From a virus, in the IMG/VR virus record IMGVR_UViG_3300037516_000402, positions 1 to 25,819 of that record: 25,819 bases of DNA. The stretch is one strand, 5' to 3'. A program made the position numbers and the translations under genes. The notes under the pieces are model-generated. The model worked only from the letters and a program-made list of their open reading frames with translations. It did no database searches and was not told the DNA's origin. This document shows positions 580-25,819 of this stretch, in pieces. Positions within the stretch are counted from its first letter, which is position 1; the number at the start of each line of letters is the position of its first letter.

Positions 580-830
580 TGTCATTTAAATTTCTCACAG
601 GTAACCAAGATATGTTTACACATTTGGAACCCACCCAACTATTAACATTAAGACAACCAACAATGATTAACAATGTTGAATTTTGTTTTCAGTTTGGTGA
701 TAATGAACCCGTAGTATTTGCAACAGGACCTAATGAATGTCAAATTCGATTAAGTCCACAAACAGATGCTAATATTATGTTCACAGATAATCATAGACAG
801 TTTAAATTATTTGCAAGAGAAAGACAATGA
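579..830 (+). CDS. Small hypothetical protein in glycan operon
   Basis: An 83-residue protein of unknown function. The ATG shares one base with the stop of the upstream glycosyltransferase, and its own stop overlaps the next ATG in an ATGA junction, so it is translated in series with its neighbours. The sequence is hydrophilic and probably beta-rich in the middle (NNVEFCFQFGDNEPVVFATG). It has no signal peptide, membrane segment or catalytic motif that I can recognise. It sits with a second small unknown protein between glycosylation enzymes and could be a small virion protein or a glycan acceptor; that is inference only. Confidence 0.75.
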   Translation: MSFKFLTGNQDMFTHLEPTQLLTLRQPTMINNVEFCFQFGDNEPVVFATGPNECQIRLSPQTDANIMFTDNHRQFKLFARERQ

Positions 831-1036
831 GAAAGTTTACCTTCTTTGTTGGTATTAGTAAACCAACACTAACCGCAACTTGGTCACCTGAATTCAATGA
901 TAATTTATTTACTAACCACGGTATTGATGCTGAGGCGGAACTAACAAGAATAATGTCAGCAGAAATTGCAAGAACAATAGATGAAGATATAATAAGAACA
1001 TTAACAAGAGAAATAAACGGAGGATTAAGAGCCTAA
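827..1036 (+). CDS. Small hypothetical protein with C-terminal helical motif
   Basis: A 69-residue protein that begins in an ATGA overlap with the previous gene and ends one base before the epimerase ATG. The C-terminal half (about residues 36-69) is a predicted amphipathic helix with LTRIMSAEIARTIDEDIIRT. This is reminiscent of helical Ile-Asp-x-x-Ile segments found in some myophage structural proteins, a weak similarity from memory and not a family assignment. The N-terminus (FTFFVGISKPTLTATWSPEF) may be a short beta segment. No enzymatic motif is visible. Position within a glycosyltransferase operon suggests, but does not show, that it is linked to the glycan product. Confidence 0.7.
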   Translation: MRKFTFFVGISKPTLTATWSPEFNDNLFTNHGIDAEAELTRIMSAEIARTIDEDIIRTLTREINGGLRA

Positions 1037-1037
1037 T

Positions 1038-1883
1038 ATGAAAATTTTAGTAACAGGAGGAGCAGGATTTATAGGAACTAATCTAATTAAGAGATTATTA
1101 TTTGAAGGGCATAATGTAGAATCTATTGACAACTACGATAGTGGGTTAGTGTCCAATCACGTAGATGGGTGTAACTATCATACGGGAGATATAGAATCTA
1201 TTGGTTTGATGGATAAAGACTTTGATATGATATATCATTTAGCGGGACTAAGTAGAATCCAACCATCGTTTAAAAATCCAACAGAAACTTTCAGAGTTAA
1301 TACTATAGGTACCGAGAGTGTTTGTTCATTTGCAAAGAAAATAAATGCTAAGGTTGTATATGCGGGTTCGTCGTCAAGATGGCACGACCCATTTCAATCA
1401 CCATACGCTTGTTACAAACATATGGGTGAAGAGATTTGTAAAATGTACAGAAAGGTTTATGATATAGACATTGAAATTGTTAGATTTTATAATGTTTACG
1501 GACCTAACGAAGTTGTTGACGGTGATTGGGCCGCAGTTATTGGTATATGGAGAAGACAAGTTATTAATAAGGAACCAATTACTATTGTTGGTGACGGTAA
1601 TCAAAGACGAGATTTCACACACGTTATTGATATAGTTGATGGTTTATATAGGGTTGGTACGAGTAACGAAAAACACGAAGACGCTTGGGAGTTAGGTACT
1701 GGAACCAATTATTCAATACTTGAAGTCTATGAAATGTTTAAGGAAAAATTTGGGTGTGATAAGTTACACATTGAGAATCAGAAGGGTAACTATCGTATAA
1801 CTTTGCGTGAAAATAACGATGCAATCGACCGTTTAGGTTGGTCACCAGAAAATAGATTAAAAAATTATGTAGATAGTTTATGA
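1038..1883 (+). CDS. NAD-dependent nucleotide-sugar epimerase/dehydratase (extended SDR)
   Basis: A 281-residue extended short-chain dehydrogenase. The N-terminal Rossmann motif is GGAGFIG (Gly7-x-x-Gly10-x-x-Gly13). The Asp31-Asn-Tyr region following beta-2 fits NAD(P) binding, and Ser111-113 with Tyr123-x-x-x-Lys127 form the catalytic triad. FYNVYGP and GDGNQRRDFTHVID are hallmark segments of UDP-glucose 4-epimerase and related sugar-nucleotide enzymes. Members interconvert or dehydrate nucleotide sugars in the cytoplasm. The exact reaction is not resolved: UDP-Glc/UDP-Gal 4-epimerase would fit well, because it would supply UDP-galactose to the UDP-galactopyranose mutase encoded downstream, but other epimerases or reductases look alike. 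At 281 residues it is shorter than the usual 310-340. Its stop overlaps the next gene in ATGA. Confidence 0.88.
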   Translation: MKILVTGGAGFIGTNLIKRLLFEGHNVESIDNYDSGLVSNHVDGCNYHTGDIESIGLMDKDFDMIYHLAGLSRIQPSFKNPTETFRVNTIGTESVCSFAKKINAKVVYAGSSSRWHDPFQSPYACYKHMGEEICKMYRKVYDIDIEIVRFYNVYGPNEVVDGDWAAVIGIWRRQVINKEPITIVGDGNQRRDFTHVIDIVDGLYRVGTSNEKHEDAWELGTGTNYSILEVYEMFKEKFGCDKLHIENQKGNYRITLRENNDAIDRLGWSPENRLKNYVDSL

Positions 1884-2503
1884 AAATAAGTTTTGCTATA
1901 ACAGTATCCAAAGAGATAAACGAAATTAAACATTTAGTTCCATTCTTATTAGAACATAAACGACCTCAAGATGAGATAGTTGTTTTGTTTGATGAAAAAA
2001 ATGGAGACAAGGAAGTGTTAGATTTTTTATTGCCTTTTAATATCAAACCTAACGTACAAACCTGGAGAGGTTTTGATTTTGATTATAACTTTGCCGATTG
2101 GAAGAATAAATTAAATTCTTATTGTGTTGGGGATTATATATTTCAATTAGATGCTGATGAGATGGTAAGTGAGTATATGATAAAGAACGTTACTGAAATC
2201 ATTTCTATGAATAAGGACGTTGAGTTATTTTTTCTACCAAGAATAAACATAGTAAGTGGAATAACTCAGGATCATATTAATAGATGGGGATGGATAGTTG
2301 ATGACTTAGGTAGGATTAACTTTCCAGACTTTCAAGGTAGAATATATAAGAAAGGTTTGGAATGGCAGGGAAAAGTTCACGAAAGAATTGTAGGAACGAA
2401 GTCCTATTCATTACTACCATCAGATGAAGAGTCGTATTGTATTAAACATTACAAAGACATATCTAAACAAGAACAACAAAATAACTTATACAGTAAAATA
2501 TGA
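1880..2503 (+). CDS. Glycosyltransferase family 2-like (GT-A)
   Basis: A 207-residue protein starting in an ATGA overlap with the epimerase. The N-terminus lacks the most classical GT2 opening, but residues 30-40 (DEIVVLFDE) and the nucleotide-binding Asp91-Ala-Asp93-Glu94 (FQLDADEMV) after a conserved FADWKNKLNSYCVGDYIF are typical of GT2 enzymes; the acidic triad binds the metal and the nucleotide-sugar phosphate. The later W-x-G-K-V-H-E-R region (about 160-170) is common in this subgroup and lies near the acceptor side. No membrane segment is present, so it probably acts in the cytoplasm on a soluble or peripheral acceptor. Sugar specificity is unknown. Confidence 0.85.
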   Translation: MKISFAITVSKEINEIKHLVPFLLEHKRPQDEIVVLFDEKNGDKEVLDFLLPFNIKPNVQTWRGFDFDYNFADWKNKLNSYCVGDYIFQLDADEMVSEYMIKNVTEIISMNKDVELFFLPRINIVSGITQDHINRWGWIVDDLGRINFPDFQGRIYKKGLEWQGKVHERIVGTKSYSLLPSDEESYCIKHYKDISKQEQQNNLYSKI

Positions 2504-3048
2504 AACTAGAAGAAATATACAATCAGAGATGTTCAACTCCATCGGATATTAATGAACACTTACCAACATTAAAGAAATACGCCGAGGAGTGTGACCACAT
2601 TACCGAAATGGGAGTTAGATGGGTGGTATCAACTTACGCCTTTATGATGGGGGGACCTAAAAAATTAATATCAATTGACATTAACCCCGTTGAAAAACAC
2701 GGAATTAAAGTTGAAGACTTAGTTGAATTAGCCAAAGAAAAAAATGTTGATTTTGAATTTCAATTAGGTGACACTACTGTAATTGAAATTGATGAAACTG
2801 ATTTTCTTTTTATTGATACTTGGCACGTTTACCAACAATTAAAAACAGAATTAACACTACACGGTAATAAAGCTAGAAAATATATTGGATTCCACGACAC
2901 CACAATATTTGAAACTAGAGGGGAAAACGGTCATCCTGGTTTATGGCCCGCAATCGAGGAGTTCTTATCTGAAAACCCTCATTGGTCAGTCCACGAAAGG
3001 TTTACAAATAACAACGGATTAACTATATTAAAGAGAAATGAAGATTGA
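2500..3048 (+). CDS. Class I SAM-dependent methyltransferase-like protein
   Basis: A 182-residue protein with a Rossmann-like methyltransferase layout: Glu36-Met-Gly38 as a short motif I, SIDINP with Asp60 at the end of beta-2, LGDT with Asp91, and FLFIDTWHVYQQLKTEL with Asp106 and His109, then GFHDT with His132 and Asp133. The IDTxHxYxQ and FHDT segments resemble the CmcI/rhamnosyl O-methyltransferase-like group, which often sits in polysaccharide loci. The protein lacks the fullest G-x-G-x-G loop, so substrate and even activity are open. It begins in ATGA overlap with the preceding glycosyltransferase, and its end overlaps the next gene by 11 bases. An O-methylated sugar is the likeliest product, by context. 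Confidence 0.75.
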   Translation: MKLEEIYNQRCSTPSDINEHLPTLKKYAEECDHITEMGVRWVVSTYAFMMGGPKKLISIDINPVEKHGIKVEDLVELAKEKNVDFEFQLGDTTVIEIDETDFLFIDTWHVYQQLKTELTLHGNKARKYIGFHDTTIFETRGENGHPGLWPAIEEFLSENPHWSVHERFTNNNGLTILKRNED

Positions 3049-3616
3049 ATTTATAATACCGACTTATAATAGGGTACATCACTTAATGACTATTATTAGT
3101 TCAATATTTGCTCAAACTAATCCAAATTGGTATATACACGTTGTTGCCGATTGTCCACCCGAAGGAACATTAGATAAGATAATGGACTTTTACAAGGATA
3201 GTGATAAAATAAAATTCACAATTTTAGAAAAAAGGTATAACGATTGGGGACATACCCCAAGAAATTACGGATTAAAAAACTCTAAAGAAGAGTGGGTTAT
3301 TATGACGGGAGAGGATAACTACTACGTTCCTACTTTTGTTGGGGAATTTTTAAAAGTTGCAACTCAGAACACCATATTTGTTTATTGTAATATGGTTCAT
3401 AATTGGGTGAATAAAGACTACATTGCAATTAAATCTCAACCAATATTAGGTCACATTGATATTGGTAATTTTATGGTTAAAAAAAGATTAGCTAAAGATA
3501 TGGAATTGGATGTGACAGAAGCTAACGCCGATGGTTTGTTTGTTGAGGAATACTTGAGACAATATCCTTTCGGTAAACAAAAGTTTATAGAAAAATTTTT
3601 ATATGTCCACAACTAA
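3038..3616 (+). CDS. Glycosyltransferase family 2 (GT-A)
   Basis: A 192-residue GT2 enzyme. The N-terminus EFIIPTYNR followed by helical HHLMTIISSIFAQTNPNWYIHVVADCPP is the classic GT2 nucleotide-binding opening. HTPRNYGLKN (about 72-81) matches the G-x-x-x-A-R-N-x-G-I type segment. MTGEDNYYVP with Glu92-Asp93 occupies the position of the D-x-D motif. It is shorter than average (usual 230-300 residues) and holds only the core catalytic domain. It overlaps both neighbours (11 bases upstream, 14 downstream), supporting co-translation. The sugar and acceptor are unknown. Confidence 0.88.
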   Translation: MKIEFIIPTYNRVHHLMTIISSIFAQTNPNWYIHVVADCPPEGTLDKIMDFYKDSDKIKFTILEKRYNDWGHTPRNYGLKNSKEEWVIMTGEDNYYVPTFVGEFLKVATQNTIFVYCNMVHNWVNKDYIAIKSQPILGHIDIGNFMVKKRLAKDMELDVTEANADGLFVEEYLRQYPFGKQKFIEKFLYVHN

Positions 3617-4367
3617 AAAGAAATGTGCGGTTTTTACTATTGTAAAAAATGAAAATTACTTCTTACCAATATGGTTAAAACATTATAAGAGGTACTTTGA
3701 TAATTCAGACATTTATATCTTAGACCATCAATCGAATGATGGGTCAACTGAAGGATTAGATGTTAATGTTGACTTAGTTATTAACGAAATGGCATTTGAT
3801 CATCAATGGTTAGTTAATACCGTAGAAAACTTCCAAGTTAAATTACTTGAGAACTATGAATCGGTTTTATTTGTGGAAATAGATGAGATAATATATACTC
3901 TTGACAAACCATTAAATGAAGTTATAATTGATTTTATTAACGATGATAATTTACTTGTTCAATCTTGTACTAGTAGAGATTTATTACAAATTTTAGAAAC
4001 AGAAAAGTCTTTAGAAGAGGGTGATTTAATTATTGAAAATAGAAACTATTGGTTCGAGGATGCAATTTACCATAAAACATTATTATCTAAAGTACCTTTA
4101 AAATGGGTGGTTGGATTTCATTACATAACTAACCATACCACAAACCACACACTTAACCTTAGAATGTGTCACTTACATCGTTTTGATTTTGAATTAATGT
4201 GTGAAAGAAATATTCATCGTATAAATAATACCCAAATTGAGGGTGGTGCAAATGGTTTTCAAAATAAAACAACAGATAAAAATAAATTAATGGATTTCTT
4301 TATTATGGAACATAATAAAAAGGAACTCATTCCTGAAGAACATAAAATAGCTCTAAAACATATATGA
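3603..4367 (+). CDS. Glycosyltransferase family 2-like (Glyco_tranf_2_4/GT92-like)
   Basis: A 254-residue protein beginning inside the previous gene. The opening AVFTIVKNENYFLPIWLKHY, then DIYILDHQSNDGSTEGL, is characteristic of the GT2-like/GT92-like group in which a K-N-E motif precedes a W-L-x-H-Y helix. The metal-binding acidic motif is Glu92-Ile-Asp94-Glu95 in LFVEIDEII. Histidine-rich GFHYITNHTTNH and CHLHRFDFE (about 174-200) are also common in this group. The enzyme probably transfers a sugar in the cytoplasm. It has no signal peptide or membrane segment and ends in an ATGA overlap with the following methyltransferase. Confidence 0.82.
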   Translation: MSTTKKKCAVFTIVKNENYFLPIWLKHYKRYFDNSDIYILDHQSNDGSTEGLDVNVDLVINEMAFDHQWLVNTVENFQVKLLENYESVLFVEIDEIIYTLDKPLNEVIIDFINDDNLLVQSCTSRDLLQILETEKSLEEGDLIIENRNYWFEDAIYHKTLLSKVPLKWVVGFHYITNHTTNHTLNLRMCHLHRFDFELMCERNIHRINNTQIEGGANGFQNKTTDKNKLMDFFIMEHNKKELIPEEHKIALKHI

Positions 4368-4990
4368 ATTTAATTGATAAAAATATCTACAATGAATTTA
4401 CTTTATTGCCCGAAGATACATCTGGTTGGAATGGGAATAGTGAAGTTTTTGTTAAATTAATTACAGAAATTAAACCTAAAACAATTATTGAAGTTGGTTC
4501 TTGGAAAGGACAGTCAGCAATTAATATGGGTAAAACAACTAAGGAATTGGGATTAGGTACCACAATACATTGTGTGGACACTTGGTTAGGTGCAATTGAA
4601 TTTTGGTCAAGTTTAAAGGAAACAGAAGAACGTAATTTATTATTACGTCACGGATACCCTCAGATTTATTATCAATTTTTAAGTAATGTAATTCACAATG
4701 GTTTACAAGATACTATTTTACCATTTCCAAATACATCGGAAAATGGATTTAGATATTTTAGAGATATAAAACTGACCGCGGATTTAATTTACATCGACGC
4801 CTCTCACGAGGAGGAAGATGTTTATAAAGATGTAAATAATTATTTTACCTTATTAAACGCGGGAGGTATAATATTTGGGGATGATTATGTTAGTTGGATT
4901 GATGTAAAGAAATCAATTGACAGATTCGTTAAAGAACAAAATTTAACTTTAGAAGTATTGGAAAATAATTTTTGGGTTATAAAAAAATAA
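4364..4990 (+). CDS. Class I SAM-dependent methyltransferase (Methyltransf_24-like)
   Basis: A 208-residue enzyme. The SAM-binding motif I is IIEVGSWKGQS (Glu43-x-Gly45-x-x-x-Gly49). Beta-2 ends with the acidic IHCVDTW (Asp72), and the post-core motif LIYIDASHEEEDVYKDV (Asp145, His148) followed by AGGIIFGDDY (Asp173-Asp174) is diagnostic of the Methyltransf_24 and macrocin-O-methyltransferase-like group. These enzymes commonly methylate sugar hydroxyls or O-antigen residues. It is the second methyltransferase of the operon and is unlike the one at 2500-3048, suggesting two separate methylation steps. It starts in ATGA overlap with the previous gene and stops four bases before the UDP-galactopyranose mutase gene. 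Confidence 0.87.
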   Translation: MNLIDKNIYNEFTLLPEDTSGWNGNSEVFVKLITEIKPKTIIEVGSWKGQSAINMGKTTKELGLGTTIHCVDTWLGAIEFWSSLKETEERNLLLRHGYPQIYYQFLSNVIHNGLQDTILPFPNTSENGFRYFRDIKLTADLIYIDASHEEEDVYKDVNNYFTLLNAGGIIFGDDYVSWIDVKKSIDRFVKEQNLTLEVLENNFWVIKK

Positions 4991-4994
4991 GATT

Positions 4995-6089
4995 ATGGTA
5001 TATGATTACTTAATAGTGGGTTCTGGATTCTTCGGTAGTATCTGTGCACACGAACTTAACAAAACAGGTAAGAAGGTTTTAGTGATTGATTCAAGAAATC
5101 ATATAGGTGGTAACTGTCACACAGAAAATAAAGATGGTATCAATGTTCACACATATGGTCCTCACGTATTTCACACATCAAATGAAGAAGTTTGGAAATG
5201 GATTAATCAATTTGTTGAATTCAATAACTTCAGACTGAATCCTGTTGCCAATTACAAAGATGAATTGTATTCGTTACCTTTTAATATGTGGACATTTAAT
5301 AAGTTATGGAATGTTACCACACCTGAACAAGCTAAACTTGTTATTGAGAATCAATCTAAAGAGATTGGTGAACCAACTAACTTAGAGGAACAAGCAATTA
5401 AATTGGTTGGTAAGGATGTGTATGAGAAATTGATTAAAGGATATACCACCAAACAATGGAAGAAAGACCCTAAAGAATTACCTAAAGAGATTATAACTAG
5501 ATTACCTGTTAGATTTACATTTGATGGTAACTACTTCAATGACAAGTATCAAGGTATTCCAATTGGTGGTTACACACAGATATTTGAAAAGTTATTAGAT
5601 GGTATTGAAGTTAGGTTGGGTGTTGATTATTTCAAAGATGAATTACCCGAACATACTAAAGTAATATACACTGGTCCTATTGATAGGTTCTTTGATTACA
5701 AGTATGGTGAATTAGAATATAAAACAACAAGGTTCGAACATAAACACTTTGACACACCAAACTATCAAGGTACAGCAGTAATGAACTACACTGAAGAAGA
5801 GATAGTACATACTAGAACTATTGAACATAAACATTTTGAAAGTTCAGACACACCAACAACTTGGGTTTCGTGGGAATATCCTCACACATATAAGGCAGGT
5901 GAGACCGAACCATATTATCCTGTGAATGATAAATCAAATACTGAGATATATTCAAAGTATAAAGAAGAGGCAAATAAATTAAGTGATAGTGTTTTATTTG
6001 GTGGTAGGTTAGCCGAGTACAAATATTATGATATGCATCAAGTAATTGCGTCAGCGTTAGATTTTATAAATAAAGAAATTAATAAATGA
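4995..6089 (+). CDS. glf: UDP-galactopyranose mutase
   Basis: A 364-residue flavoenzyme that converts UDP-galactopyranose to UDP-galactofuranose, the donor for galactofuranose-containing glycans. The FAD-binding Rossmann start is VGSGFFG (Gly9-x-Gly11-x-x-Gly14). HIGGNCHTE (about 36-44) and YGPHVFHT (54-61) are signature segments of bacterial Glf. GYTTKQWKKDPKELP with Trp155 and RLPVRFTF with Arg173 match the mobile loop whose arginine (Arg174 in the Klebsiella enzyme) contacts the UDP-sugar. The length is as in the family. It lies four bases after the methyltransferase and overlaps the last glycosyltransferase in ATGA, which makes that enzyme a candidate galactofuranosyltransferase. Finding Glf in a phage implies that the phage makes its own Galf donor. 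Confidence 0.95.
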   Translation: MVYDYLIVGSGFFGSICAHELNKTGKKVLVIDSRNHIGGNCHTENKDGINVHTYGPHVFHTSNEEVWKWINQFVEFNNFRLNPVANYKDELYSLPFNMWTFNKLWNVTTPEQAKLVIENQSKEIGEPTNLEEQAIKLVGKDVYEKLIKGYTTKQWKKDPKELPKEIITRLPVRFTFDGNYFNDKYQGIPIGGYTQIFEKLLDGIEVRLGVDYFKDELPEHTKVIYTGPIDRFFDYKYGELEYKTTRFEHKHFDTPNYQGTAVMNYTEEEIVHTRTIEHKHFESSDTPTTWVSWEYPHTYKAGETEPYYPVNDKSNTEIYSKYKEEANKLSDSVLFGGRLAEYKYYDMHQVIASALDFINKEINK

Positions 6090-7195
6090 ATATAACATTT
6101 GTATTGGCGGTATTAAATAAATTAGATTTAACCAAGGATTGTTATAATCATTTACGTAAGTTATATCCAGAGGTACCGTTAGTTATTAGTAGTGGCGGAT
6201 CTTTAGATGGTACAAAGGAATGGTTAGAATCTTTAGATGATGAGTATATGTCATATTTTCACGACGATGAAAGATTGACATTTTCCGATACCTACAATGC
6301 TGGAATTAAATTAGTTGATACTGAGAAATTAGTGTTGATACATAACGATATGGTTATTGGTGAACAGTTCTTAGAGAACTTAGATAGATTATTAGATGAG
6401 AATCCAAATACTTTATTATCGTACACCACAATTGAACCTCCAATCTTTAAGGGACACAAAAGACCTGGTAAAGTATTAATGGATATGGGGTCATCGTTTC
6501 ATAATTTTGACCATACTTTATTTGAACGATACGTTCAAGACAATAAAGATAAATGTAATATCTACGATGGTGCGGTTTTCTTTATGAGTGGGACCAAGAA
6601 AATGTTTGATGATATTGGCGGGTTTGATGGTTTTAGTTTTGTCCCTTGTTTCTGTGAGGATGATGATTTCTTAATTCGTGCGAAACTAAAAGGCTACGAA
6701 CTTAAAACTACGGACTGTGCAATCACCTATCATTTTGTTTCGCAGACATCTAGATTTAGTGACGAGATGAAGACCGATAGGTTTAAAATTGAAGTTTCGT
6801 CAAATAGAAACTTTATTAGGAAGTGGGGTATTCCAATATCATCGTTTAATGAATTAAGATATTGGGAAGATAAGATTTTCAAATATAATACCTTTTCAAT
6901 TGGTTTGACAACTAGAGATAAATCGAAATTAGTACAATTAGAACCTTACTTTGATAAAATCGATTTAGGGGTGATTCCTGAAGATTATATAGAGAATGAA
7001 CAAAAGAATACACGCTACGATTTAAGGTCGAAATTTACCCTTACTGACACCGTTGACGTGATGGTTTATGAAACTGCACCATTCACAGATGAAGACATTT
7101 ATACTTTGAATAGATTAAGGTTGTCATTACCTCATTATGAACCTGGACAATACAATATAGGTAATATGTTAATAGAAATAAAAAAGGGACTATAA
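6086..7195 (+). CDS. Glycosyltransferase family 2, last gene of glycan operon
   Basis: A 369-residue GT2 enzyme. The start TFVLAVLNKLDLTKDCYNHL and LVISSGGSLDGTKEWLE form the nucleotide-binding half, and LIHNDMV (His86-Asn87-Asp88) is in the D-x-D position. A middle segment YDGAVFFMSGTKKMFDDIGGFD is the usual acceptor-side signature, and CFCEDDDFLIRAKLKGY (Glu191-Asp192) carries the likely catalytic base, as in many GT2 enzymes. The C-terminal 120 residues (about 250-369) are an extension I do not recognise. The start is an ATGA overlap with glf, so it may be the galactofuranosyltransferase (inference). The stop codon TAA lies within the loop of the terminator hairpin. Confidence 0.88.
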   Translation: MNITFVLAVLNKLDLTKDCYNHLRKLYPEVPLVISSGGSLDGTKEWLESLDDEYMSYFHDDERLTFSDTYNAGIKLVDTEKLVLIHNDMVIGEQFLENLDRLLDENPNTLLSYTTIEPPIFKGHKRPGKVLMDMGSSFHNFDHTLFERYVQDNKDKCNIYDGAVFFMSGTKKMFDDIGGFDGFSFVPCFCEDDDFLIRAKLKGYELKTTDCAITYHFVSQTSRFSDEMKTDRFKIEVSSNRNFIRKWGIPISSFNELRYWEDKIFKYNTFSIGLTTRDKSKLVQLEPYFDKIDLGVIPEDYIENEQKNTRYDLRSKFTLTDTVDVMVYETAPFTDEDIYTLNRLRLSLPHYEPGQYNIGNMLIEIKKGL

Positions 7196-10783: not shown

Positions 10784-10950
10784 TTTATTTTATTTAAAAG
10801 TTCTTCTTTAAATTCTTTCTCAGGTTTTTGAAAGTGCATCCACATTGGTTTTTTACATTGGCAAGTGGATTCAGTTATTCTATTAACCAAATCATTATAT
10901 TTCTCTTCTAAAAATTGAATACGTTCTTTTAATTCTTTAATCTCGTCCAT
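10780..10950 (-). CDS. Small coiled-coil hypothetical protein
   Basis: I take the ATG at 10950, giving 56 residues (MDEIKELKERIQFLEEKYND...); earlier in-frame ATGs at 10971 and 10992 lengthen the overlap with the halogenase gene and add a poorly conserved-looking segment. The first 25 residues form a heptad-like charged coiled coil. A Cys-x-Cys and then KKPMWMHF follow, perhaps a metal or redox site. The gene overlaps the halogenase end by 14 bases and the next gene by four. No known family is recognised. Confidence 0.6.
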   Translation of the reverse strand: MDEIKELKERIQFLEEKYNDLVNRITESTCQCKKPMWMHFQKPEKEFKEELLNKIK

Positions 10951-12454
10951 AGAATTTTTTAAGGTATTCATAGTGGTTAGGTAATTGGTCAACTAACAGT
11001 TCTGCTTCCTTGCGGATAATCTCCATTTTCATATCACAAAACTTATCGTATTTTGGATTTAATTTAAATCTACTATTTTTATAGAACCCCATAGCCCATA
11101 ACCATTGGAACCAATTAACTCCACCAAATATACGACCTCTAAACAATTGTTCAGGTGGTTGTATTGACATAATATGTAACTTTTGTTTTAATGTGTCAGG
11201 TACAAATGATTTCTCTTTTACGTCTTTCCAAAATTGAGTATCGTTCCTATTACATAATAAATAATGTGCCTGAATGAAATCTCTAATATCAATCATCATA
11301 TCGATGTTATCTTTATTGATTGCATCAATTGTTGATGATGTGTAGTTAAGATTATTTTTTTCTAATTCCGTTGCTAATGTTGCCATTATACCTTGAAACG
11401 TTGAAATACCTGTCGACTCCATTGGTTCCGCAAAACCACCAGCTAATCCACAAGCAACTACATTTTTAACTGCTACTTTTTCACGAGTACCAATTCTCAT
11501 ATTAATTTTTATAACCTTACCATCGTATCCTCCGTGAAATTCTCTATATTCTTTTTCCGCATCCTCATCACTAATATGTTTTGATGAGTACACATACCCA
11601 GAACCTATTCTATCGAAGATGGGTGTTTTCCATAACCAACCACTATTCATTGTGTAAAGTCTCGAATATGGTTCCATTTCTGATTTCTTATCTTTATATG
11701 GGATTGGTGCCGCAATGGCTTTATCACAAAATAATGAATCACTAAATGAAATGAATGGTTCATTCATAACTGATTCAATTAATGCACCTTTGAACCCAGA
11801 ACAATCAATAAACAAATCAGCCGCAAATTTTTGTTGATCCCATAATTTAATGTCTTGAATATAACCAAAGTCATTTAGTTTAACTTGTTTTAATTGACCC
11901 TCAACAAATTTAACACCATTAGGTATACATACTTTATTTTTAATAACTTCAGCAAATTTAATTGCGTCGAAATTATAACTGTAAACACTCTCAATATCTT
12001 CGTAAGTTGGTAGATAAGTTAAATCATCATCAATTTTTGGACAAAGATTATTATCACATAATTTAGAAGATATAAATAACTCATCTAATTTTTTTGAGTC
12101 GTCTTTATATTTCGATACAAGGTGTTGTAGTAAGTTTGTGTTTTTATTAACAAATAATTTAGATTCATTCTCAACACGAACCATATGTTCACCAGTACTA
12201 GACCAATTCATAAACTTACCTCCGTACTTATATGTTGCAGACGATTCATTCATCCAATCTTCTTCTTTAAGTCCTATAAATTTCATATAAGAATGAAGAC
12301 TAGCCGTTGAACTTTCACCAACACCAATTGCACCAATTTTATTTGAGTGAATTACTGTGATGTCTAATTTTTCTTTAAATACTTTAGACAATAATGCTGC
12401 TGTCATTATGCCAGCTGTACCGCCACCAACGATTACAATTTTTTTAATTTCCAT
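10937..12454 (-). CDS. Flavin-dependent tryptophan-halogenase-like protein
   Basis: A 505-residue flavoenzyme. The FAD-binding motif VGGGTAG (9-15) opens the protein, followed by GVGESSTASL (44-53). SSATYKYGGKFMNW aligns with the PrnA region holding the catalytic lysine (Lys79 there), which makes Lys76 the likely lysine. Trp273-Leu-Trp275-Lys-Thr-Pro278 is the WxWxIP signature with Ile changed to Thr, and GFAEPMESTGI places Glu346 at the family's conserved glutamate position. The family uses reduced flavin, oxygen and halide to make an HOX-derived species that halogenates aromatic substrates. All key residues are present, so the enzyme is probably active. Halogenases have been described from cyanophages and marine virus data, with substrate preference not limited to tryptophan. 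It needs a flavin reductase, which is not seen here. The A-rich leader and 12-base gap tie it to the upstream gene. Confidence 0.92.
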   Translation of the reverse strand: MEIKKIVIVGGGTAGIMTAALLSKVFKEKLDITVIHSNKIGAIGVGESSTASLHSYMKFIGLKEEDWMNESSATYKYGGKFMNWSSTGEHMVRVENESKLFVNKNTNLLQHLVSKYKDDSKKLDELFISSKLCDNNLCPKIDDDLTYLPTYEDIESVYSYNFDAIKFAEVIKNKVCIPNGVKFVEGQLKQVKLNDFGYIQDIKLWDQQKFAADLFIDCSGFKGALIESVMNEPFISFSDSLFCDKAIAAPIPYKDKKSEMEPYSRLYTMNSGWLWKTPIFDRIGSGYVYSSKHISDEDAEKEYREFHGGYDGKVIKINMRIGTREKVAVKNVVACGLAGGFAEPMESTGISTFQGIMATLATELEKNNLNYTSSTIDAINKDNIDMMIDIRDFIQAHYLLCNRNDTQFWKDVKEKSFVPDTLKQKLHIMSIQPPEQLFRGRIFGGVNWFQWLWAMGFYKNSRFKLNPKYDKFCDMKMEIIRKEAELLVDQLPNHYEYLKKFYGRD

Positions 12455-15502: not shown

Positions 15503-16468
15503 TTAATAACCACTCCACATTGGTGATCCTGAACTTAATGACCTTGGTGCGTCTGGTATTTGTATAACCGTATCTGTTGGGTATTCCACCCTATCTGTGT
15601 GTGCATTTTGTGCTCCATTATATCCTCCCGCCCAATATCCGTGATTCTGACCCATAACTGGTGATTGTTCACCATTAGCTAAAGTTTGGTTATATGGATT
15701 TGTTTGATATGAATATGTTATGTGCATAAATTTCATAAATGGATAGGTTACATTATCCCCAATAACATATGATTTAGCATCTTTTGTTGGTAGTCCTTTA
15801 CCCCAAGCACCTAAAGATGTTGTATAGTTAGGTGAACAAGATATAGATCCCCAAGTTTCAGTTGCGTATGGATATCTTCTAGTCACACCATCATTACCCA
15901 AACTAAATCCCGCTAATTTATCAAACCAAGCTTGTGTATATGCGGTTCCAGTTGCAATACTACCATCACTAGCTGCCACCCAAGTATCTGCCGCGAAGTT
16001 TAATTTATCGTAGTTAGTACTATTTGCGTTTGCTAAGGTATATGCTCTAGTCCCAAAAAAAGAACCGTCGGTGTTGTAACCAATACCGTGTTGTATTTGT
16101 GATGAACTATTAGCACTTGCGTAGTTTCTATTATTGATGTTAGTACATACTTCAGTACTAAATGCCATTTTTTGATTTATTACATCTCCACCGCACCAAA
16201 ACATATATCCGTTTGTGTGTGAACTTGCCCAACCTCCATAATATAAACTTGATCGTAACGATGCGTTTGCAGATGTTCCCCAAGCATCTGTTGCATTTTG
16301 TATTGTTGTTACAACTGACCAAACTGAAGAACCAATATAACCACCACCGATATATCCTTTAGTTAAGGATAAACCATTCTTATAATCATCGGCAATGTAT
16401 TCAAGGTTCAAAGCTGAACCATTGTATTTCATTGTTCCCGTATAATTTATTTGTCCGTATACTTTCAT
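15503..16468 (-). CDS. Kelch-like propeller adhesin (paralog 2)
   Basis: A 321-residue protein that starts MKVYGQINYTGTMKYNG, the anchor-like N-terminus shared with its paralogs and similar to the fibre's GDLTVLG. The propeller region begins KGYIGGGYIGSSVW near residue 38. Blade-like repeats include QNATDAWG, AFSTEVC, FAADTW, YATETWG and a HGIGY motif. The C-terminus IQIPDAPRSLSSGSPMW is nearly identical in form to the other two. There is no signal peptide or enzyme motif. It is nine bases before the 528-residue paralog and four bases after the 323-residue one, so all are likely virion proteins made together. Function in host recognition is inferred. Confidence 0.78.
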   Translation of the reverse strand: MKVYGQINYTGTMKYNGSALNLEYIADDYKNGLSLTKGYIGGGYIGSSVWSVVTTIQNATDAWGTSANASLRSSLYYGGWASSHTNGYMFWCGGDVINQKMAFSTEVCTNINNRNYASANSSSQIQHGIGYNTDGSFFGTRAYTLANANSTNYDKLNFAADTWVAASDGSIATGTAYTQAWFDKLAGFSLGNDGVTRRYPYATETWGSISCSPNYTTSLGAWGKGLPTKDAKSYVIGDNVTYPFMKFMHITYSYQTNPYNQTLANGEQSPVMGQNHGYWAGGYNGAQNAHTDRVEYPTDTVIQIPDAPRSLSSGSPMWSGY

Positions 16469-16472
16469 ATTA

Positions 16473-17444
16473 TTAAATTGGACTCCACATTGGAGATGCT
16501 GAACTTAATGATCTTGGCGCGTCCGCAATTTGAACGACCGTATCTGTATTGTGAAACACTTTGTCACTATGCGCATTTTGACTATAGGTACCTTGATATC
16601 CACCAGCTAAATAACCGTGATTCTGTCCCATAGTTCCTGCGTGTTCACAGTTGGGTTGTGTTTGACTTCCAAAATTTACAGTCCACGTTGATATACTATT
16701 TCTAAATTGGAATATTGTATTATTATACCAACCACTATTACCCGCAACATACGCCTTACCTTTTTTAGTATTAAGACCTTTCTCTAATTGTCCTTGTGGC
16801 ATACCCATAGTAATTGGTCCACTAACTGTTGAAAGTGTTGACCAAGTTTCGGATGCAAATGGAAATATTTTAGTGTAATTATTTAACGATGCAAAGTTCC
16901 AACCATACTCTTTATCAAACCAACCGTAAGCGTGAGATGCTTGACCTATGTTACCATCCGACCTTGCGGTCATTGAATCTGTTGTAAAATCTAATTTATC
17001 ATAACTAGTTGATGAGTTTCCACAAGTGTATGCATATCTTCCATATGGTACTCCCGTTGTTTCAAATCCAACACCTTGTTGAATCAATGATGGTGAATAA
17101 CTACCATTTGTTCTTGCTGCGGTTGTTGTAACTGTCTCATTGGCAAACATTACTTTATTAACTGTGGATGCATTTCCTTGAAAAACATAACCGAATGTAT
17201 GTGCTGAAGCCCATCCTCCGTAATTGGTTGTGAATGTTAATATATTAGATGAAGTTGCCCAAGCATCTGTCGCATAACTTAATAATGTTATGGTATTCCA
17301 TACTGAAGCACCAACATAACCACCACCAATCAAACCACGAATAAGAACTAATCCTAATTCGTAGTGACTATCTAAAACACTTTTAATATCTCTACCTTGT
17401 ACTGTTAGATTTCCCGTAAAATTTACATCTCCGTTTACTTTCAT
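16473..17444 (-). CDS. Kelch-like propeller adhesin (paralog 1)
   Basis: A 323-residue protein directly after the long tail fibre (one base between them). The start MKVNGDVNFTGNLTVQG closely mirrors the fibre's own N-terminal SGDLTVLGN, suggesting a common attachment element. The propeller begins RGLIGGGYVGASVW at about 38 and carries YATDAW, FANETV, FTTDSM, FASETW and HGYLAGGY repeats, with YGWFDKEYGW in the middle. It ends VVQIADAPRSLSSASPMW. Similar kelch-like propeller repeats occur in marine T4-like structural proteins. A tail-tip or accessory-fibre adhesin is the best guess. Confidence 0.78.
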   Translation of the reverse strand: MKVNGDVNFTGNLTVQGRDIKSVLDSHYELGLVLIRGLIGGGYVGASVWNTITLLSYATDAWATSSNILTFTTNYGGWASAHTFGYVFQGNASTVNKVMFANETVTTTAARTNGSYSPSLIQQGVGFETTGVPYGRYAYTCGNSSTSYDKLDFTTDSMTARSDGNIGQASHAYGWFDKEYGWNFASLNNYTKIFPFASETWSTLSTVSGPITMGMPQGQLEKGLNTKKGKAYVAGNSGWYNNTIFQFRNSISTWTVNFGSQTQPNCEHAGTMGQNHGYLAGGYQGTYSQNAHSDKVFHNTDTVVQIADAPRSLSSASPMWSPI

Positions 17445-21597: not shown

Positions 21598-22401
21598 TTA
21601 AATTAACGCCTTTTTGGGTTGTGTTAATCCCAATGGTAGGTATTCTCTGAAATTTTTATATATATAATCGAATAATACTCTACCATAGTGTTTATGATGT
21701 TCAATACCAGGATGTAAATTATCTGAACCTAAGTCCATTTTAAACTTATCTAATGCTGTAAATCTATTAAACTCCTTATAATCCGTTAGTAAATGTTTAC
21801 CATCCCATAACCAATTACATTTTTTTGACTCTAAAAATAACTTTATTAACATATGATTTTTATACCAATTTACAAAATCGGCATTTTTATTTTGTAATGC
21901 GTCCATACTACTTTGAATTATTTTACCGTCTTCCGTTTCCGATAATTTTCCCCAGGATTTGGTTGGTATATATGGTTCGATACTATTATCTTCAGTATAA
22001 ATTTCTCTCCTATGTGGGAATGTATACATTATTAAAACTAAATCTGGTTTAATTAAATCATAATAACTCATTAAACACCTACTTATAAAATCATTACTCC
22101 TTCCTCCTGTTCCAAAATTAAAATTTACACCATTTTCAATATGACTACAAAATTGAGCGGGCCAAGTTTCATCATCATTTACACCAACACCTTCAGTGAT
22201 TGAACAACCTAATGACATTACCTTAAACCCTTCTTTTTTTATACTGTCACCTCTAAACCCCAATTCATTATATGTGTATACACATTTACCAGTGCTATCA
22301 CCACCAGAAGTTGTGTAAGTTTGATTTACTCTTTCTTTTAATGAATATCTATAAGATGATATTTCAAATCCTTCTGGATTCCAATATTGTAAAGATTTCA
22401 T
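21598..22401 (-). CDS. SGNH/GDSL-hydrolase-like protein
   Basis: A 267-residue protein with SGNH-hydrolase motifs: SLGCSITEGVGV with the likely nucleophile Ser67 (GDS replaced by GCS), GTGGRSNDF with Gly99 and Asn103 in the oxyanion-hole positions, and a C-terminal DNLHPG with Asp227 and His230 completing the triad. The family hydrolyses esters, often removing or moving acetyl groups on polysaccharides. There is no signal peptide, so it may act in the cytoplasm or be virion-associated. It is the last gene of the minus-strand modification operon, starting in ATGA overlap with the prolyl-hydroxylase-like gene and 54 bases before the long tail fibre. An esterase or acetyltransferase-like role on fibre or host glycans fits. 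Confidence 0.85.
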   Translation of the reverse strand: MKSLQYWNPEGFEISSYRYSLKERVNQTYTTSGGDSTGKCVYTYNELGFRGDSIKKEGFKVMSLGCSITEGVGVNDDETWPAQFCSHIENGVNFNFGTGGRSNDFISRCLMSYYDLIKPDLVLIMYTFPHRREIYTEDNSIEPYIPTKSWGKLSETEDGKIIQSSMDALQNKNADFVNWYKNHMLIKLFLESKKCNWLWDGKHLLTDYKEFNRFTALDKFKMDLGSDNLHPGIEHHKHYGRVLFDYIYKNFREYLPLGLTQPKKALI

Positions 22402-22901
22402 ATCAATTTATTTATTTCCAATGGATTTATGTGTTCGTTTTGTAAAAACCATAATAAAGAGTATCGTTCTCCTTTTAAAATTGTTGTTATTTCGTGGTCT
22501 ATTCTTGTATCAAATAAATATGTATTCCCCATCACTTTATTTAATACGATTTCATTTGGGTTATACAACTTAAAGTCTCCACCCTCAAAATCGTCACTTA
22601 ATAAGACTCCCACAGCATATAGCCTATTTTCTCGAATGTCGTTGTGTTTTCCAAACCAATCACCTTTTGTAAATTTATGAAAATGAATGACTTCTTTATT
22701 TCTTTTTATTTGTATGTTTGATTCTTCTTCAAAAAATGTTTTAAGTTTATCAAACAACCATTTGGTTTCCAACGAATATCTAATTGGTTGTGAATTGAAT
22801 TTTCTATCGCCCATTATCCAATTTGTAATGTGAGTGTCGTTATATAATATTATAGATTCACACTCCTCTTTACTAAATAATATTTTTTCTTTTAAAATCA
22901 T
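22398..22901 (-). CDS. Prolyl-4-hydroxylase-like 2OG-Fe(II) oxygenase
   Basis: A 167-residue oxygenase. The iron ligands His86-Asn-Asp88 (GKHNDIREN) and His136 (DTRIDHEITT) and the 2-oxoglutarate site Arg146 (KGERYSLLWFL) follow the P4Hc layout. FEGGDFKLYN is the typical strand between them. It is a single compact domain, typical of phage 2OG oxygenases, whose substrates are mostly unknown. It overlaps the sulfotransferase upstream by 29 bases and the SGNH gene in ATGA. It is a separate type from the Asp/Asn hydroxylase at 7715-8281, so the window has two oxygenases with different likely targets. Confidence 0.88.
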   Translation of the reverse strand: MILKEKILFSKEECESIILYNDTHITNWIMGDRKFNSQPIRYSLETKWLFDKLKTFFEEESNIQIKRNKEVIHFHKFTKGDWFGKHNDIRENRLYAVGVLLSDDFEGGDFKLYNPNEIVLNKVMGNTYLFDTRIDHEITTILKGERYSLLWFLQNEHINPLEINKLI

Positions 22902-23433
22902 ACGTTAAAGTATATGTGTCTTTTCTATATTTTTTATCATAATCAATCATATCCAAATGTTTTGGATTTTCAATATTTAAATAACTAATTACCTTATTAA
23001 CATCTGTTTTATTAACGTATATGTTTTCATATGTTGTTTGAAATAAATTTTTATTTTTTAAACGGTTTTTTAAATGTTCATATTTGTAAACCATTTCTAT
23101 TATTTTATTTTTATTGTCATCAATCCACTCATTTGTTATCTCATATGTCTCGTGCCACCTTCCTTTATTATCTGCATTAATAAAACTTATGGCACTGTCA
23201 ATATCATTTTCTCTACTCAAACAAATAACCTTATCAAATTTTTCAATAACTTCATTTGATGGGTTATATTCTTCAATAACAATTTTTCTAATTATATTAT
23301 TTTTTTCAAATACAGAATTAAATTGTTTAAAATCATAATGTGTTGCATCTAATTCAATATCTAATTCTTTCGATATCCATTTACATAATGTAGTAGAACC
23401 ACATCTTGTATGTGATAGTATTAAAATTCTCAT
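22873..23433 (-). CDS. Sulfotransferase-like P-loop protein (small)
   Basis: A 186-residue protein starting MRILILSHTRCGSTTL, where SHTRCGSTTL (7-16) fits the 5'-phosphosulfate-binding loop of PAPS sulfotransferases. VICLSREND (69-77) with Arg74 and a following Ser80 fits the 3'-phosphate-binding segment. The family transfers sulfate from PAPS to hydroxyls on carbohydrates or small molecules; this one is short and the substrate is unknown. Its ATG immediately precedes the stop of the radical SAM gene, so they are co-expressed. No PAPS synthesis gene is visible, so it would use the host pool. Confidence 0.75.
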   Translation of the reverse strand: MRILILSHTRCGSTTLCKWISKELDIELDATHYDFKQFNSVFEKNNIIRKIVIEEYNPSNEVIEKFDKVICLSRENDIDSAISFINADNKGRWHETYEITNEWIDDNKNKIIEMVYKYEHLKNRLKNKNLFQTTYENIYVNKTDVNKVISYLNIENPKHLDMIDYDKKYRKDTYTLTYDFKRKNII

Positions 23434-24474
23434 CTATATCAATGTTTTATCTGTATTATCTATAAACTCATATAGGTTATGAAAAAGGTTTTGATTTTTC
23501 CATATTCTATTTAACTCTTTTTTAAATAAATGATGTTCAGGGTGTTCATCGTCCCATACTTGCTTTAATTTAAATTCACCTTCAGAAAATGTTCCCCAAT
23601 TAGTTATTTTACCAAAGAACACATTTACTTTCTCACCAAAAATGGAATACATCAAGTTATAAAATTCTTCCATTTCCATATAGTTAGAATCTTGAACAAC
23701 AAAGGATGTTTTTACATTTATAGGTAACGTACTTATGAATTTTAAATTATCTATTAGATTATCCCATTTACCACCTAATCTAGTTTTATTTTCATACGTG
23801 TCTTTTGTTCCCGCATCTATACTGATTTCACAAGTGTGAACATATTTGTGTATGTTAGACATACTATCCCACATTTCTTTATTCCACATTGATGCGTTAG
23901 TGTGTAAGTGTATTGATTTTAGATTTGGATATTTTTTGGGGTTGAAGTTTCTAAGATAATTCCTAAATCCAACTGATACAAATGGATCCCCGGAACCGGT
24001 GATGTATAATGTTTTTACGTATTGTGAAAAGTAAGTGTCAATGTCTTCAATTGTTTTCTCTACTCGTTTTATACCTTTACTGTCTTCAACAATTAAATCT
24101 ACCCTACAAGAAGGACATTTGTAATTACAAGTCCTATCAAAATTCATCACTATATTATCTGGTGTATTATTCTTTACTATTGGGTCAACAATGGTTGAAT
24201 TTGATTTTAGTGTTACTGGTCCAGATGTTACACCGTAGTTTACTAATTTACTTAAATAAGGACAAAGCTCTTTACTACAATACTTAAACGAACCATCTAA
24301 TATTGAATTTCTAATGTTAATTATTGGTTCACTGTTGTAAACATCTTTTAACGGTATTTCAGATAATTCCACTTTGTTTGGTAACCAGGATGGGCAACAC
24401 ACAAAACAAACATTATTATGTATTTCTAATGAATTAAATGGCACATTACACGTGTAATTTTTTAAATCAACCAT
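23434..24474 (-). CDS. Radical SAM protein with N-terminal SPASM-like Cys region
   Basis: A 346-residue radical SAM enzyme. The cluster motif is Cys116-x3-Cys120-x2-Cys123 (DRTCNYKCPSCRVD), followed by ITGSGDPF (159-165) in the place of the usual GGEP motif. Unusually, the SPASM-like pattern, with cysteines at 9, 23, 26, 27, 66 and 71 and an LKDVYNSEPIINIRNS segment, precedes the radical SAM core; in standard enzymes it follows it. SPASM enzymes commonly modify peptides or proteins. The target is unknown; the Cys-rich partial protein, the 25-residue ORF and the fibre are neighbours. It lies three bases after the stop of the sulfotransferase upstream and abuts the smaller sulfotransferase downstream. 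Confidence 0.9.
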   Translation of the reverse strand: MVDLKNYTCNVPFNSLEIHNNVCFVCCPSWLPNKVELSEIPLKDVYNSEPIINIRNSILDGSFKYCSKELCPYLSKLVNYGVTSGPVTLKSNSTIVDPIVKNNTPDNIVMNFDRTCNYKCPSCRVDLIVEDSKGIKRVEKTIEDIDTYFSQYVKTLYITGSGDPFVSVGFRNYLRNFNPKKYPNLKSIHLHTNASMWNKEMWDSMSNIHKYVHTCEISIDAGTKDTYENKTRLGGKWDNLIDNLKFISTLPINVKTSFVVQDSNYMEMEEFYNLMYSIFGEKVNVFFGKITNWGTFSEGEFKLKQVWDDEHPEHHLFKKELNRIWKNQNLFHNLYEFIDNTDKTLI

Positions 24475-24477
24475 TGT

Positions 24478-25203
24478 TTAAATTAATTGATTTCTTGGTT
24501 CGAATCTTTTTTCAAAGTTATCGAACACCCATTTTTTTAACTTATCATCTTTTACGATGTTGTTTTTTATTGGGTTGCTTTTATTTATTCTACCTACCTT
24601 GAAATCAATTTCATATTTGTTACACATAAACTCTTCAAATTTATCGATTTCATCGATATTAAATTCATAGGTACATTTATTATTATCGACCCAATATGAT
24701 TGAGATAGTAACAGTATAAGTGGATTAAAAGTATAGTCTATATTTTTAGGTATATTTTTCACAAATTTATATATTATTGATTTGTTAAACTCCCTCATTT
24801 TAATTATTTCTTCATATTTCGTTAAGTCGGTTTTCATTTCCCCAATCGAATAAATTGAATCTACATAATCATTAGTAAAATTATTATATATAAAATCGTT
24901 ATCAACATCCTCCCACTTTACGGACATTTCATTACCATTAATTTCGTACATATACCAACTATGTTGTAGTGCACTTATCCACCTATCAAAATAATTTCTT
25001 TTAATAACTACAGTTTCCATTTTTCCAAAATTTACATATAGGTCAGATAACTTAACGTGTATATGTTTTGGATACTCTATATCTACTCCAAAATTGTGAT
25101 GATTAATTGTAAGTGAAGAATTAAGAATTGAATTTTCGATTGACGTACTAGCACACCTCGGAACAGATACCCAAATTAAATTGTTATTTATACATATGGA
25201 CAT
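24478..25203 (-). CDS. Sulfotransferase-family protein
   Basis: A 241-residue protein with WVSVPRCASTSIENSIL (about 11-27), the P-loop-like PAPS site in which S-V-P-R-C-A-S-T-S corresponds to the K-x-G-S/C-T-T type seen in carbohydrate sulfotransferases. VVIKRNYFDRWISAL with Arg69 and Ser77 is the R-x-P-x-x-R-x-x-S-like second PAPS segment. It differs from the smaller sulfotransferase in this operon, so two sulfation steps or substrates are implied. It lies in the same minus-strand operon, six bases after the zinc-ribbon-like gene. Substrate unknown. Confidence 0.82.
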   Translation of the reverse strand: MSICINNNLIWVSVPRCASTSIENSILNSSLTINHHNFGVDIEYPKHIHVKLSDLYVNFGKMETVVIKRNYFDRWISALQHSWYMYEINGNEMSVKWEDVDNDFIYNNFTNDYVDSIYSIGEMKTDLTKYEEIIKMREFNKSIIYKFVKNIPKNIDYTFNPLILLLSQSYWVDNNKCTYEFNIDEIDKFEEFMCNKYEIDFKVGRINKSNPIKNNIVKDDKLKKWVFDNFEKRFEPRNQLI

Positions 25204-25209
25204 AATAAA

Positions 25210-25491
25210 CTAGATAAATGTTTTATTAGTTTTTTCCTCCATTTTATATTTTTTATCGATTACTTCCCATTTTCCCAATGGGCAGGGATTAAATTCCAGA
25301 CTAAAAATTTTTTTGGATATTGGACAACCACATTCACCACATATTGTGGCAAGTTTTAGTTTTTTAGTAATTACTTTTTTTGATGGACATACATCACATA
25401 CCCCACCTCTTTCGATTGATTTGTTCAATTGATTTTCATTGGGGTTATAACTAACAACCCACGCATCAATTATCTCCTTAATGTTAATCAT
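25210..25491 (-). CDS. Small Cys-rich zinc-ribbon-like protein
   Basis: A 93-residue protein. Cysteines at 32, 35, 51, 54, 56 and 70 lie in CDVCPSKK, CGECGCPISKKIF and NPCPLGKW, the pattern of small phage proteins often called zinc-ribbon or zinc-finger-like. One or two metal sites are plausible, but the function is not known. It starts after a TTATTA spacing, two bases from the 25-residue ORF stop, and heads the enzyme series sulfotransferase, radical SAM and so on. Confidence 0.75.
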   Translation of the reverse strand: MINIKEIIDAWVVSYNPNENQLNKSIERGGVCDVCPSKKVITKKLKLATICGECGCPISKKIFSLEFNPCPLGKWEVIDKKYKMEEKTNKTFI

Positions 25492-25583: not shown

Positions 25584-25819
25584 TTAAGCGCAGTAATTAC
25601 AAATACCATTATTACAACATTGTCCCTTATTACAACTACCTTGTCCACCATATGGTGTGCCGAAGCACTCGAAGTTATTATGTTCAACAGCCGCAAAGTA
25701 AGATACATCTGAAATGGTTGGGTTACCTGTCGATGTTAAAAATAGATGAGCTCTTTCTACACCAATTGTCCATCCTGAAAATTCTTGATCCACAATATTA
25801 ATTGATTGAACGGTTTTTT
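25584..25819 (-). CDS. Partial protein with C-terminal Cys-rich knottin-like tail
   Basis: The frame is open to the window edge, so the start lies beyond position 25819; a GTG at 25793 is in frame but is probably internal. The visible part of about 78 residues ends in a Cys-rich tail. Counting from that GTG, cysteines fall at 43, 54, 59, 60, 65 and 68, a C-C-CC-C-C order as in inhibitor cystine-knot peptides. The segment before is beta-like (SGWTIGVERAHLFLTSTG). A glycine-rich loop GTPYGGQGS lies between the first two cysteines. It is the first visible gene of the enzyme operon. Whether the Cys residues form disulfides, bind metal or are modified cannot be told. Confidence 0.75.
   Translation of the reverse strand, partial: KTVQSINIVDQEFSGWTIGVERAHLFLTSTGNPTISDVSYFAAVEHNNFECFGTPYGGQGSCNKGQCCNNGICNYCA

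What the first reader, a model, noticed from the sequence alone, without database searches (positions are those of the whole stretch)
21598..25491. Compact chemistry operon: two sulfotransferases, radical SAM, prolyl-hydroxylase-like and SGNH enzymes
Five enzymes and a Cys-rich protein lie in one overlapping minus-strand set immediately before the tail fibre. Such a mix of sulfation, oxidation, radical chemistry and ester hydrolysis is more like a natural-product or RiPP locus than a standard phage region. It may decorate the fibre or produce a modified peptide during infection.
Basis: partly seen in the sequence, partly recalled or inferred. Interest (0 to 1): 0.68.

Follow-up and report, generated by a model that had tools for sequence, protein, structure and literature searches.

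The report
Phage peptide with tagged modifying enzymes
Next to its tail-fibre gene this uncultured T4-like phage carries a set of unrelated modifying enzymes that all end in the same short tag and that travel with a self-cleaving precursor-like protein ending in a small, hypervariable, cysteine-paired peptide, which suggests an undescribed phage system for making a modified peptide.

Summary
In detail: six minus-strand ORFs at 21598-25491 lie tightly packed before the fibre gene (SGNH-like, P4H-like 2OG oxygenase, Stf0-like and HS2ST-like sulfotransferase candidates, N-terminal-twitch radical SAM, Cys4 protein). Two things were missed. (1) The gene before them, cut by the window's end, encodes a 490-aa protein: an ATP-grasp-like N-terminus, an intein-type HINT domain ending in His-Asn, and a hypervariable Cys-rich tail. 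Among 117 distinct complete tails 116 have an even number of Cys; with 10 further segments enclosed by a second HINT or an S74 domain, 126 of 127. (2) All six ORFs, and no other of 24 window ORFs checked, end in a [K/N]-[T/S]-[L/I]-[I/L]-like tag. Over related loci the tag marks 77-97% of the main enzyme families of unrelated fold and 0-9% of most neighbour families; spacing and codon usage argue for selection on the protein. The enzymes follow the HINT protein, not the fibre: all 57 non-redundant HINT loci have some, 5 have a fibre nearby. I propose a peptide released by HINT cleavage and modified by tag-recruited enzymes. Release, modification and function are inferred. Against: some lineages keep several enzymes but have no Cys-rich segment.

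The parts
21598..22401 (-). SGNH/GDSL-like hydrolase ORF, 267 aa; ends ..KKALI
22398..22901 (-). 2OG-Fe(II) oxygenase, prolyl-4-hydroxylase-like, 167 aa; ends ..INKLI
22873..23433 (-). STb, Stf0/NodH-like sulfotransferase candidate, 186 aa; ends ..RKNII
23434..24474 (-). Radical SAM protein with N-terminal twitch/SPASM-like Cys motif (N_Twi_rSAM-like), 346 aa; ends ..DKTLI
24478..25203 (-). STa, HS2ST-like sulfotransferase candidate, 241 aa; ends ..RNQLI
25210..25491 (-). Cys4 protein, 93 aa, six invariant Cys (C32 C35 C51 C54 C56 C70), probably a metal-binding ribbon; ends ..NKTFI
25584..25817 (-). C-terminal part of the 490-aa ATP-grasp/HINT precursor-like protein, cut by the window end (whole in L001:5419-6891)
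25677..25682 (-). His-Asn at the end of the HINT domain (residues 459-460), predicted cleavage point
   Evidence: invariant in 28 aligned sequences
25587..25676 (-). Hypervariable tail NFECFGTPYGGQGSCNKGQCCNNGICNYCA, six Cys, predicted released peptide
21601..21615 (-). C-terminal tag of the SGNH ORF
22401..22415 (-). C-terminal tag of the 2OG ORF
22876..22890 (-). C-terminal tag of STb
23437..23451 (-). C-terminal tag of the radical SAM ORF
24481..24495 (-). C-terminal tag of STa
25213..25227 (-). C-terminal tag of Cys4

Best explanation
A phage-encoded peptide-making system. The core is a precursor-like protein: an ATP-grasp-like N-terminal domain, a HINT domain without the N-terminal Cys of inteins but with the C-terminal His-Asn, and a 23-73 residue hypervariable Cys-rich tail. 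Asn cyclisation at His-Asn would release the tail; its Cys would pair as disulfides after lysis or export. Cytosolic enzymes (2OG hydroxylases, sulfotransferases, radical SAM, SET-type and other methyltransferases), drawn in varying combinations, would modify the tail before release, and their shared C-terminal tag would dock them on a common partner, most simply the precursor, which is the constant member without a tag. Where the APS kinase lies next door it would help supply PAPS. Shown by computation: the predicted domain folds, the even Cys counts, the tag, the linkage. Inferred: cleavage, docking, modification of the tail, and any function (a released effector or a peptide shown on the virion).
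For: HINT: AlphaFold model pLDDT 83.7 matches intein and Hedgehog HINT structures, best E=2e-7, and eukaryotic-type glutathione synthetase, E=2.7e-5; relatives carry Pfam intein/Hint domains. Linkage: every radical SAM locus with more than 4.75 kb upstream has the HINT protein (61 loci have it; the 14 without are cut shorter); 124 of 132 loci found with STa or Cys4 have it; all 57 non-redundant HINT loci have at least one tagged-type enzyme, 56 a Cys4 once re-sought. Tail: 16% identity at aligned non-Cys positions, against 46% (HINT) and 54% (ATP-grasp) overall in 40 sequences; Cys even in 116 of 117 complete tails, 55 of 55 after thinning, while other residues split near half, Lys apart. Segment as a unit: in L317 and L361 it lies between the HINT and a second HINT that starts with Cys, in eight others before an S74-like domain. 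Tag: rSAM 97%, STb 89%, STa 87%, 2OG 84%, OG466 87%, Cys4 77%; APSK 3%, NTase, DUF2061, HD, Hsp20, fibre 0%; 90% at gaps of 80 nt or more and 88% at overlaps of 10 nt or more; Leu codons as background.
Against: Lineages L052-L061, L073/L074 and L146 have no Cys-rich segment, yet the first two keep STb, 2OG and radical SAM and L146 keeps 2OG; STa is absent there on the contigs searched and Cys4 absent in the first two, so only those two track the tail. Tail composition does not clearly follow enzyme content: Tyr with/without sulfotransferase p=0.065 with two loci in one group; Pro against number of 2OG genes rho 0.28, p=0.04, one of about thirty uncorrected comparisons. Tags show no within-locus co-variation (p=0.61), and no PDZ_2 domain was found in 12 phage contigs, so no reader of the tag is known. 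Glycosyltransferases and a carbamoyltransferase lie nearby here. SGNH-like proteins carry the tag in only 48-50%. No ATP-grasp sequence match in PDB; that call rests on fold comparison and a motif.
Confidence: 0.45

Rival explanations
1. Virion display: the ATP-grasp/HINT protein is a tail component, the Cys-rich segment is its exposed, variable receptor-binding head, and the tagged enzymes decorate it or the fibre during assembly.
For: Eight relatives end in an S74-like chaperone domain, typical of trimeric fibres (Pfam E=0.006, under cut-off, for the one scanned); fibre gene adjacent here; hypervariability fits receptor binding.
Against: Fibre near in 5 of 57 loci; most relatives have no S74; HINT and ATP-grasp are enzymatic folds.
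Confidence: 0.22
2. Glycan decoration: the enzymes sulfate, hydroxylate and acylate a surface or virion glycan, as proposed for cyanophage clusters; the HINT protein is a separate neighbour.
For: Carbamoyltransferase, glycosyltransferases and APS kinase upstream in L001; sugar genes at window 1-7195; STb resembles an LPS sulfotransferase; precedent in PMC7824862.
Against: In 17 HD/Hsp20-context loci the carbamoyltransferase and APS kinase were not found nearby, yet the enzymes stay with the HINT protein; SET-domain and P4H-like members suggest protein substrates.
Confidence: 0.2
3. The tag is a turnover signal that limits the enzymes to a short time in infection, not a docking signal; the rest of the best explanation may still hold.
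For: Bacterial proteases can choose substrates by hydrophobic C-termini (general knowledge); no phage PDZ_2 reader found.
Against: Would not by itself explain why the tag marks this functional group and not its neighbours.
Confidence: 0.1

Closest known systems
RiPP biosynthesis (general kind)
   Same: Ribosomal precursor with a variable C-terminal peptide, clustered modifying enzymes including radical SAM and ATP-grasp folds
   Different: Precursor is about 490 aa with its own HINT and ATP-grasp-like domains instead of a short leader; no leader-recognition element was sought; enzymes share a C-terminal tag
Bacterial intein-like (BIL) and polymorphic-toxin PT-HINT proteins
   Same: HINT fold before a variable C-terminal segment, C-terminal His-Asn
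   Different: Here no N-terminal Cys in the main HINT, and the segment is a small even-Cys peptide next to modifying enzymes
Cyanophage halogenase/carbamoyltransferase/2OG cluster of S-SSM6a (PMC7824862)
   Same: Phage cluster with carbamoyltransferase, 2OG oxygenases, halogenase; a halogenase and a carbamoyltransferase also occur in this phage
   Different: The section read names no HINT precursor, sulfotransferase, radical SAM or tag; our HINT protein had no match among isolate phages
Animal cystine-rich toxins such as conotoxins (likeness only)
   Same: Short hypervariable even-Cys peptides of the kind known with hydroxy-Pro, sulfo-Tyr or halo-Trp (from memory)
   Different: No homology tested or claimed

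Membership tests
Radical SAM superfamily | CxxxCxxC motif and Pfam Radical_SAM over cut-off | tested here: met
   PF04055 38.3 bits over 29.5; C116 C120 C123 invariant
N_Twi_rSAM (NF033640) | Score over NCBIfam cut-off | tested here: not met
   54.8 bits against 170; N-terminal Cys pattern alike by eye
2OG-Fe(II) oxygenase, P4H-like | HxD...H...R and profile match | tested here: met
   H86 D88 H136 R146 invariant; P4H and PKHD structures
PAPS-dependent sulfotransferase (STb) | 5'-PSB and 3'-PB motifs, profile match | tested here: met
   R10 G12, R74 S83 invariant; NodH E=6e-5; Pfam under cut-off
PAPS-dependent sulfotransferase (STa) | Both PAPS motifs, profile and fold match | tested here: inconclusive
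   Profile E=0.009; no fold match under E=0.001
HINT fold | Fold match and C-terminal His-Asn | tested here: met
Splicing intein | N-terminal Cys/Ser of block A | tested here: not met
   No Cys at that place in the 28 aligned sequences, read by eye
ATP-grasp, eukaryotic glutathione synthetase type | Fold match and E-x-N motif | tested here: met
   E=2.7e-5, TM 0.25-0.28; E22 N24 invariant; no sequence match
RiPP | Precursor peptide modified by the neighbouring enzymes | not testable with these tools
   Needs mass spectrometry
RiPP | Short leader or recognition element | not tested
   No RRE search was made

The most novel reading that the evidence does not exclude
A widespread T4-like phage system in which a self-cleaving ATP-grasp/HINT precursor yields hypervariable cystine-paired peptides that are modified by a changeable toolkit of enzymes of unrelated folds, all addressed to the precursor by one C-terminal tag.
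Probability: 0.4. Interest if true: 0.92.

Novelty: categorically new. Interest (0 to 1): 0.77.

Why it matters
If true, phages carry their own combinatorial peptide chemistry, with a self-releasing precursor and a simple addressing tag that would let new enzymes join by gaining a few residues. It would give a concrete, testable substrate for phage 2OG oxygenases and sulfotransferases, whose targets are mostly unknown to me, and a source of new cystine-rich peptides. The tag and the even-Cys tails stand as facts of sequence whatever the mechanism.

Tried and rejected
Direct relatives in isolate phages: none for radical SAM, STa, STb, SGNH, Cys4 or the HINT protein by tblastn (L073's longer HINT protein matches other phage inteins only); weak ones for 2OG, and the S-CAM1 2OG proteins looked at lack the tag. 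Relatives in GTDB genomes: none by these pattern scans. Tag as a by-product of the next gene's start: rejected, as it is equally common at wide gaps and at overlaps, with background Leu codons; the last Ile favours ATA, 0.67 against 0.49. Tag read by a phage PDZ: PDZ_2 not found. Genome-specific tags: not supported. Tail composition explained by enzyme content: not supported.

Choices made along the way: the tag pattern was written after I had seen C-termini in the alignments, so the first table is descriptive. The leave-one-family-out test gave 61-100% for the ten core families (25-42% for SGNH, SGNH18, GT17) against 2 of 607 controls, but I had left seven families, several of them tag-bearing and cassette-like, out of the controls by hand; with all other families of five or more members kept, 32 of 763 proteins pass. 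At the PSSM cut used on whole contigs two of the six window ORFs (STa, SGNH) fall short although they fit the pattern. Tail parsing was revised; one search is the version quoted.

Full report
Check of the observation. The six ORFs exist as described, packed on the minus strand with short overlaps or gaps, 54 nt upstream of the S74-bearing fibre ORF. Enzyme calls differ in strength: radical SAM and 2OG are firm, STb good, STa probable, SGNH probable on motif only.

Outside the window. A 67.8-kb IMG/VR contig (L001) matches this stretch, with the ten window proteins found in the fetched part identical, and extends it. Upstream lie, in order, a carbamoyltransferase, three glycosyltransferases, a small ORF, an APS kinase (PF01583 E=1.3e-20; APS kinase structures E=5e-17), a small nucleotidyltransferase-like protein, a DUF2061 membrane protein and the 490-aa protein whose last 77 residues are window ORF 25584-25817. 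An APS kinase makes PAPS, the donor that sulfotransferases use, from APS; I did not find an ATP sulfurylase in the genes annotated. Twelve related contigs of 68-336 kb all match the T4 major capsid family Gp23, eleven over its cut-off.

The 490-aa protein. AlphaFold on 28 relatives and Foldseek give a HINT/intein fold in the second half and a glutathione-synthetase-like ATP-grasp in the first. The His-Asn before the tail is invariant in the alignment, while the N-terminal Cys of inteins is absent; by analogy with intein chemistry this would leave C-terminal cleavage possible and splicing not. The tail is hypervariable.

Even cysteines. The final count covers 117 distinct complete tails: 6 Cys in 78, 8 in 34, 10 in three, 4 in one, 9 in one (L292). 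Eight S74-flanked segments and the two Cys-rich segments between two HINT domains are all even. Tails are related, so these are not 127 independent draws; after thinning to 55 dissimilar tails from the first set all 55 are even, while Pro, Tyr, Gly and Ser split near half. Lys does not: 95 of 117 tails have exactly one. Even Cys suggests pairing, as in disulfides; pairing itself was not shown.

The tag. In one search, with a pattern of K, R, N or H, then one or two residues, then two hydrophobic ones at the end, the tag is on rSAM 58/60, STb 73/82, STa 81/93, 2OG 203/242, OG466 53/61, OG15 16/19, Cys4 66/86, MT26 12/13, OG35 11/11, AspH 6/6; SGNH 25/52. It is on 0 of 48 NTase, 43 DUF2061, 35 HD, 33 Hsp20 and 109 HINT proteins, 1/37 APSK, 4/47 CarbT; on 99 of 531 proteins of other small families and 41 of 356 unassigned ones. 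In the window it is on the six ORFs only. In three large contigs 7 of 96, 11 of 444 and 9 of 423 called genes pass a PSSM cut, many of them in the HINT locus, some elsewhere. Families of 2OG fold may share it by descent; radical SAM, sulfotransferase, Cys4 and methyltransferase families are different folds. The pattern was formed after seeing the data; controls and their limits are under Tried and rejected.

Linkage. Among 57 non-redundant HINT loci with at least 3 kb before and 6 kb after: a sulfotransferase in 54, a 2OG-type in 53, Cys4 in 56 once re-sought, radical SAM in 25, SGNH in 19, APSK in 17, fibre in 5, and none without any of these enzyme types. The enzymes stay with the HINT protein in a genomic context where fibre, carbamoyltransferase and APS kinase were not found nearby. 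Gene calls are longest-ORF calls of my own, so counts are approximate.

Weak points. Lineages without the Cys-rich segment keep several of the enzymes. No statistic clearly ties tail composition to enzyme content. Nothing shows cleavage, docking or modification. Host and function are unknown.

Novelty. My searches of the held open-access papers for HINT with Cys-rich peptides in phages, phage RiPPs and phage sulfotransferase/radical SAM sets returned no account of such a system in the titles and abstract openings shown; I opened two of those papers, PMC7824862 and PMC12619734. Subscription papers were not searched. The nearest precedent I found is the cyanophage cluster in PMC7824862.

Noticed in passing
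10937-12454 (-): Flavin-dependent tryptophan halogenase (PF04820 E=4e-105) about 9 kb downstream of the set; ends without the tag.
   Followed up: no
1-7195 (+): Sugar gene cluster: glycosyltransferases, NDP-sugar epimerase, UDP-galactopyranose mutase, methyltransferase; untagged ends.
   Followed up: partly
15503-17444 (-): Two neighbouring relatives of phrog_1417, function unknown.
   Followed up: no
L224:5503-6855 (-): A second radical SAM protein with N-terminal SPASM-like part and the tag (..NKKLI), about 15 kb upstream of the Cys4 gene in the same phage contig.
   Followed up: partly
G001:C1:25851-25988, G002:C1:302958-303137 and others: Short open frames (76-138 aa) that match only an inner part of the T4 major capsid model Gp23.
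   Followed up: no
L059:1218-3956: A relative of the 490-aa protein with three canonical HINT domains in a row and no Cys-rich segment.
   Followed up: partly
L361:9445-11364 and L317:1488-3365: Cys-rich segment between two HINT domains, the second starting with Cys: the order used in laboratory peptide cyclisation by split inteins (the comparison is from memory).
   Followed up: no
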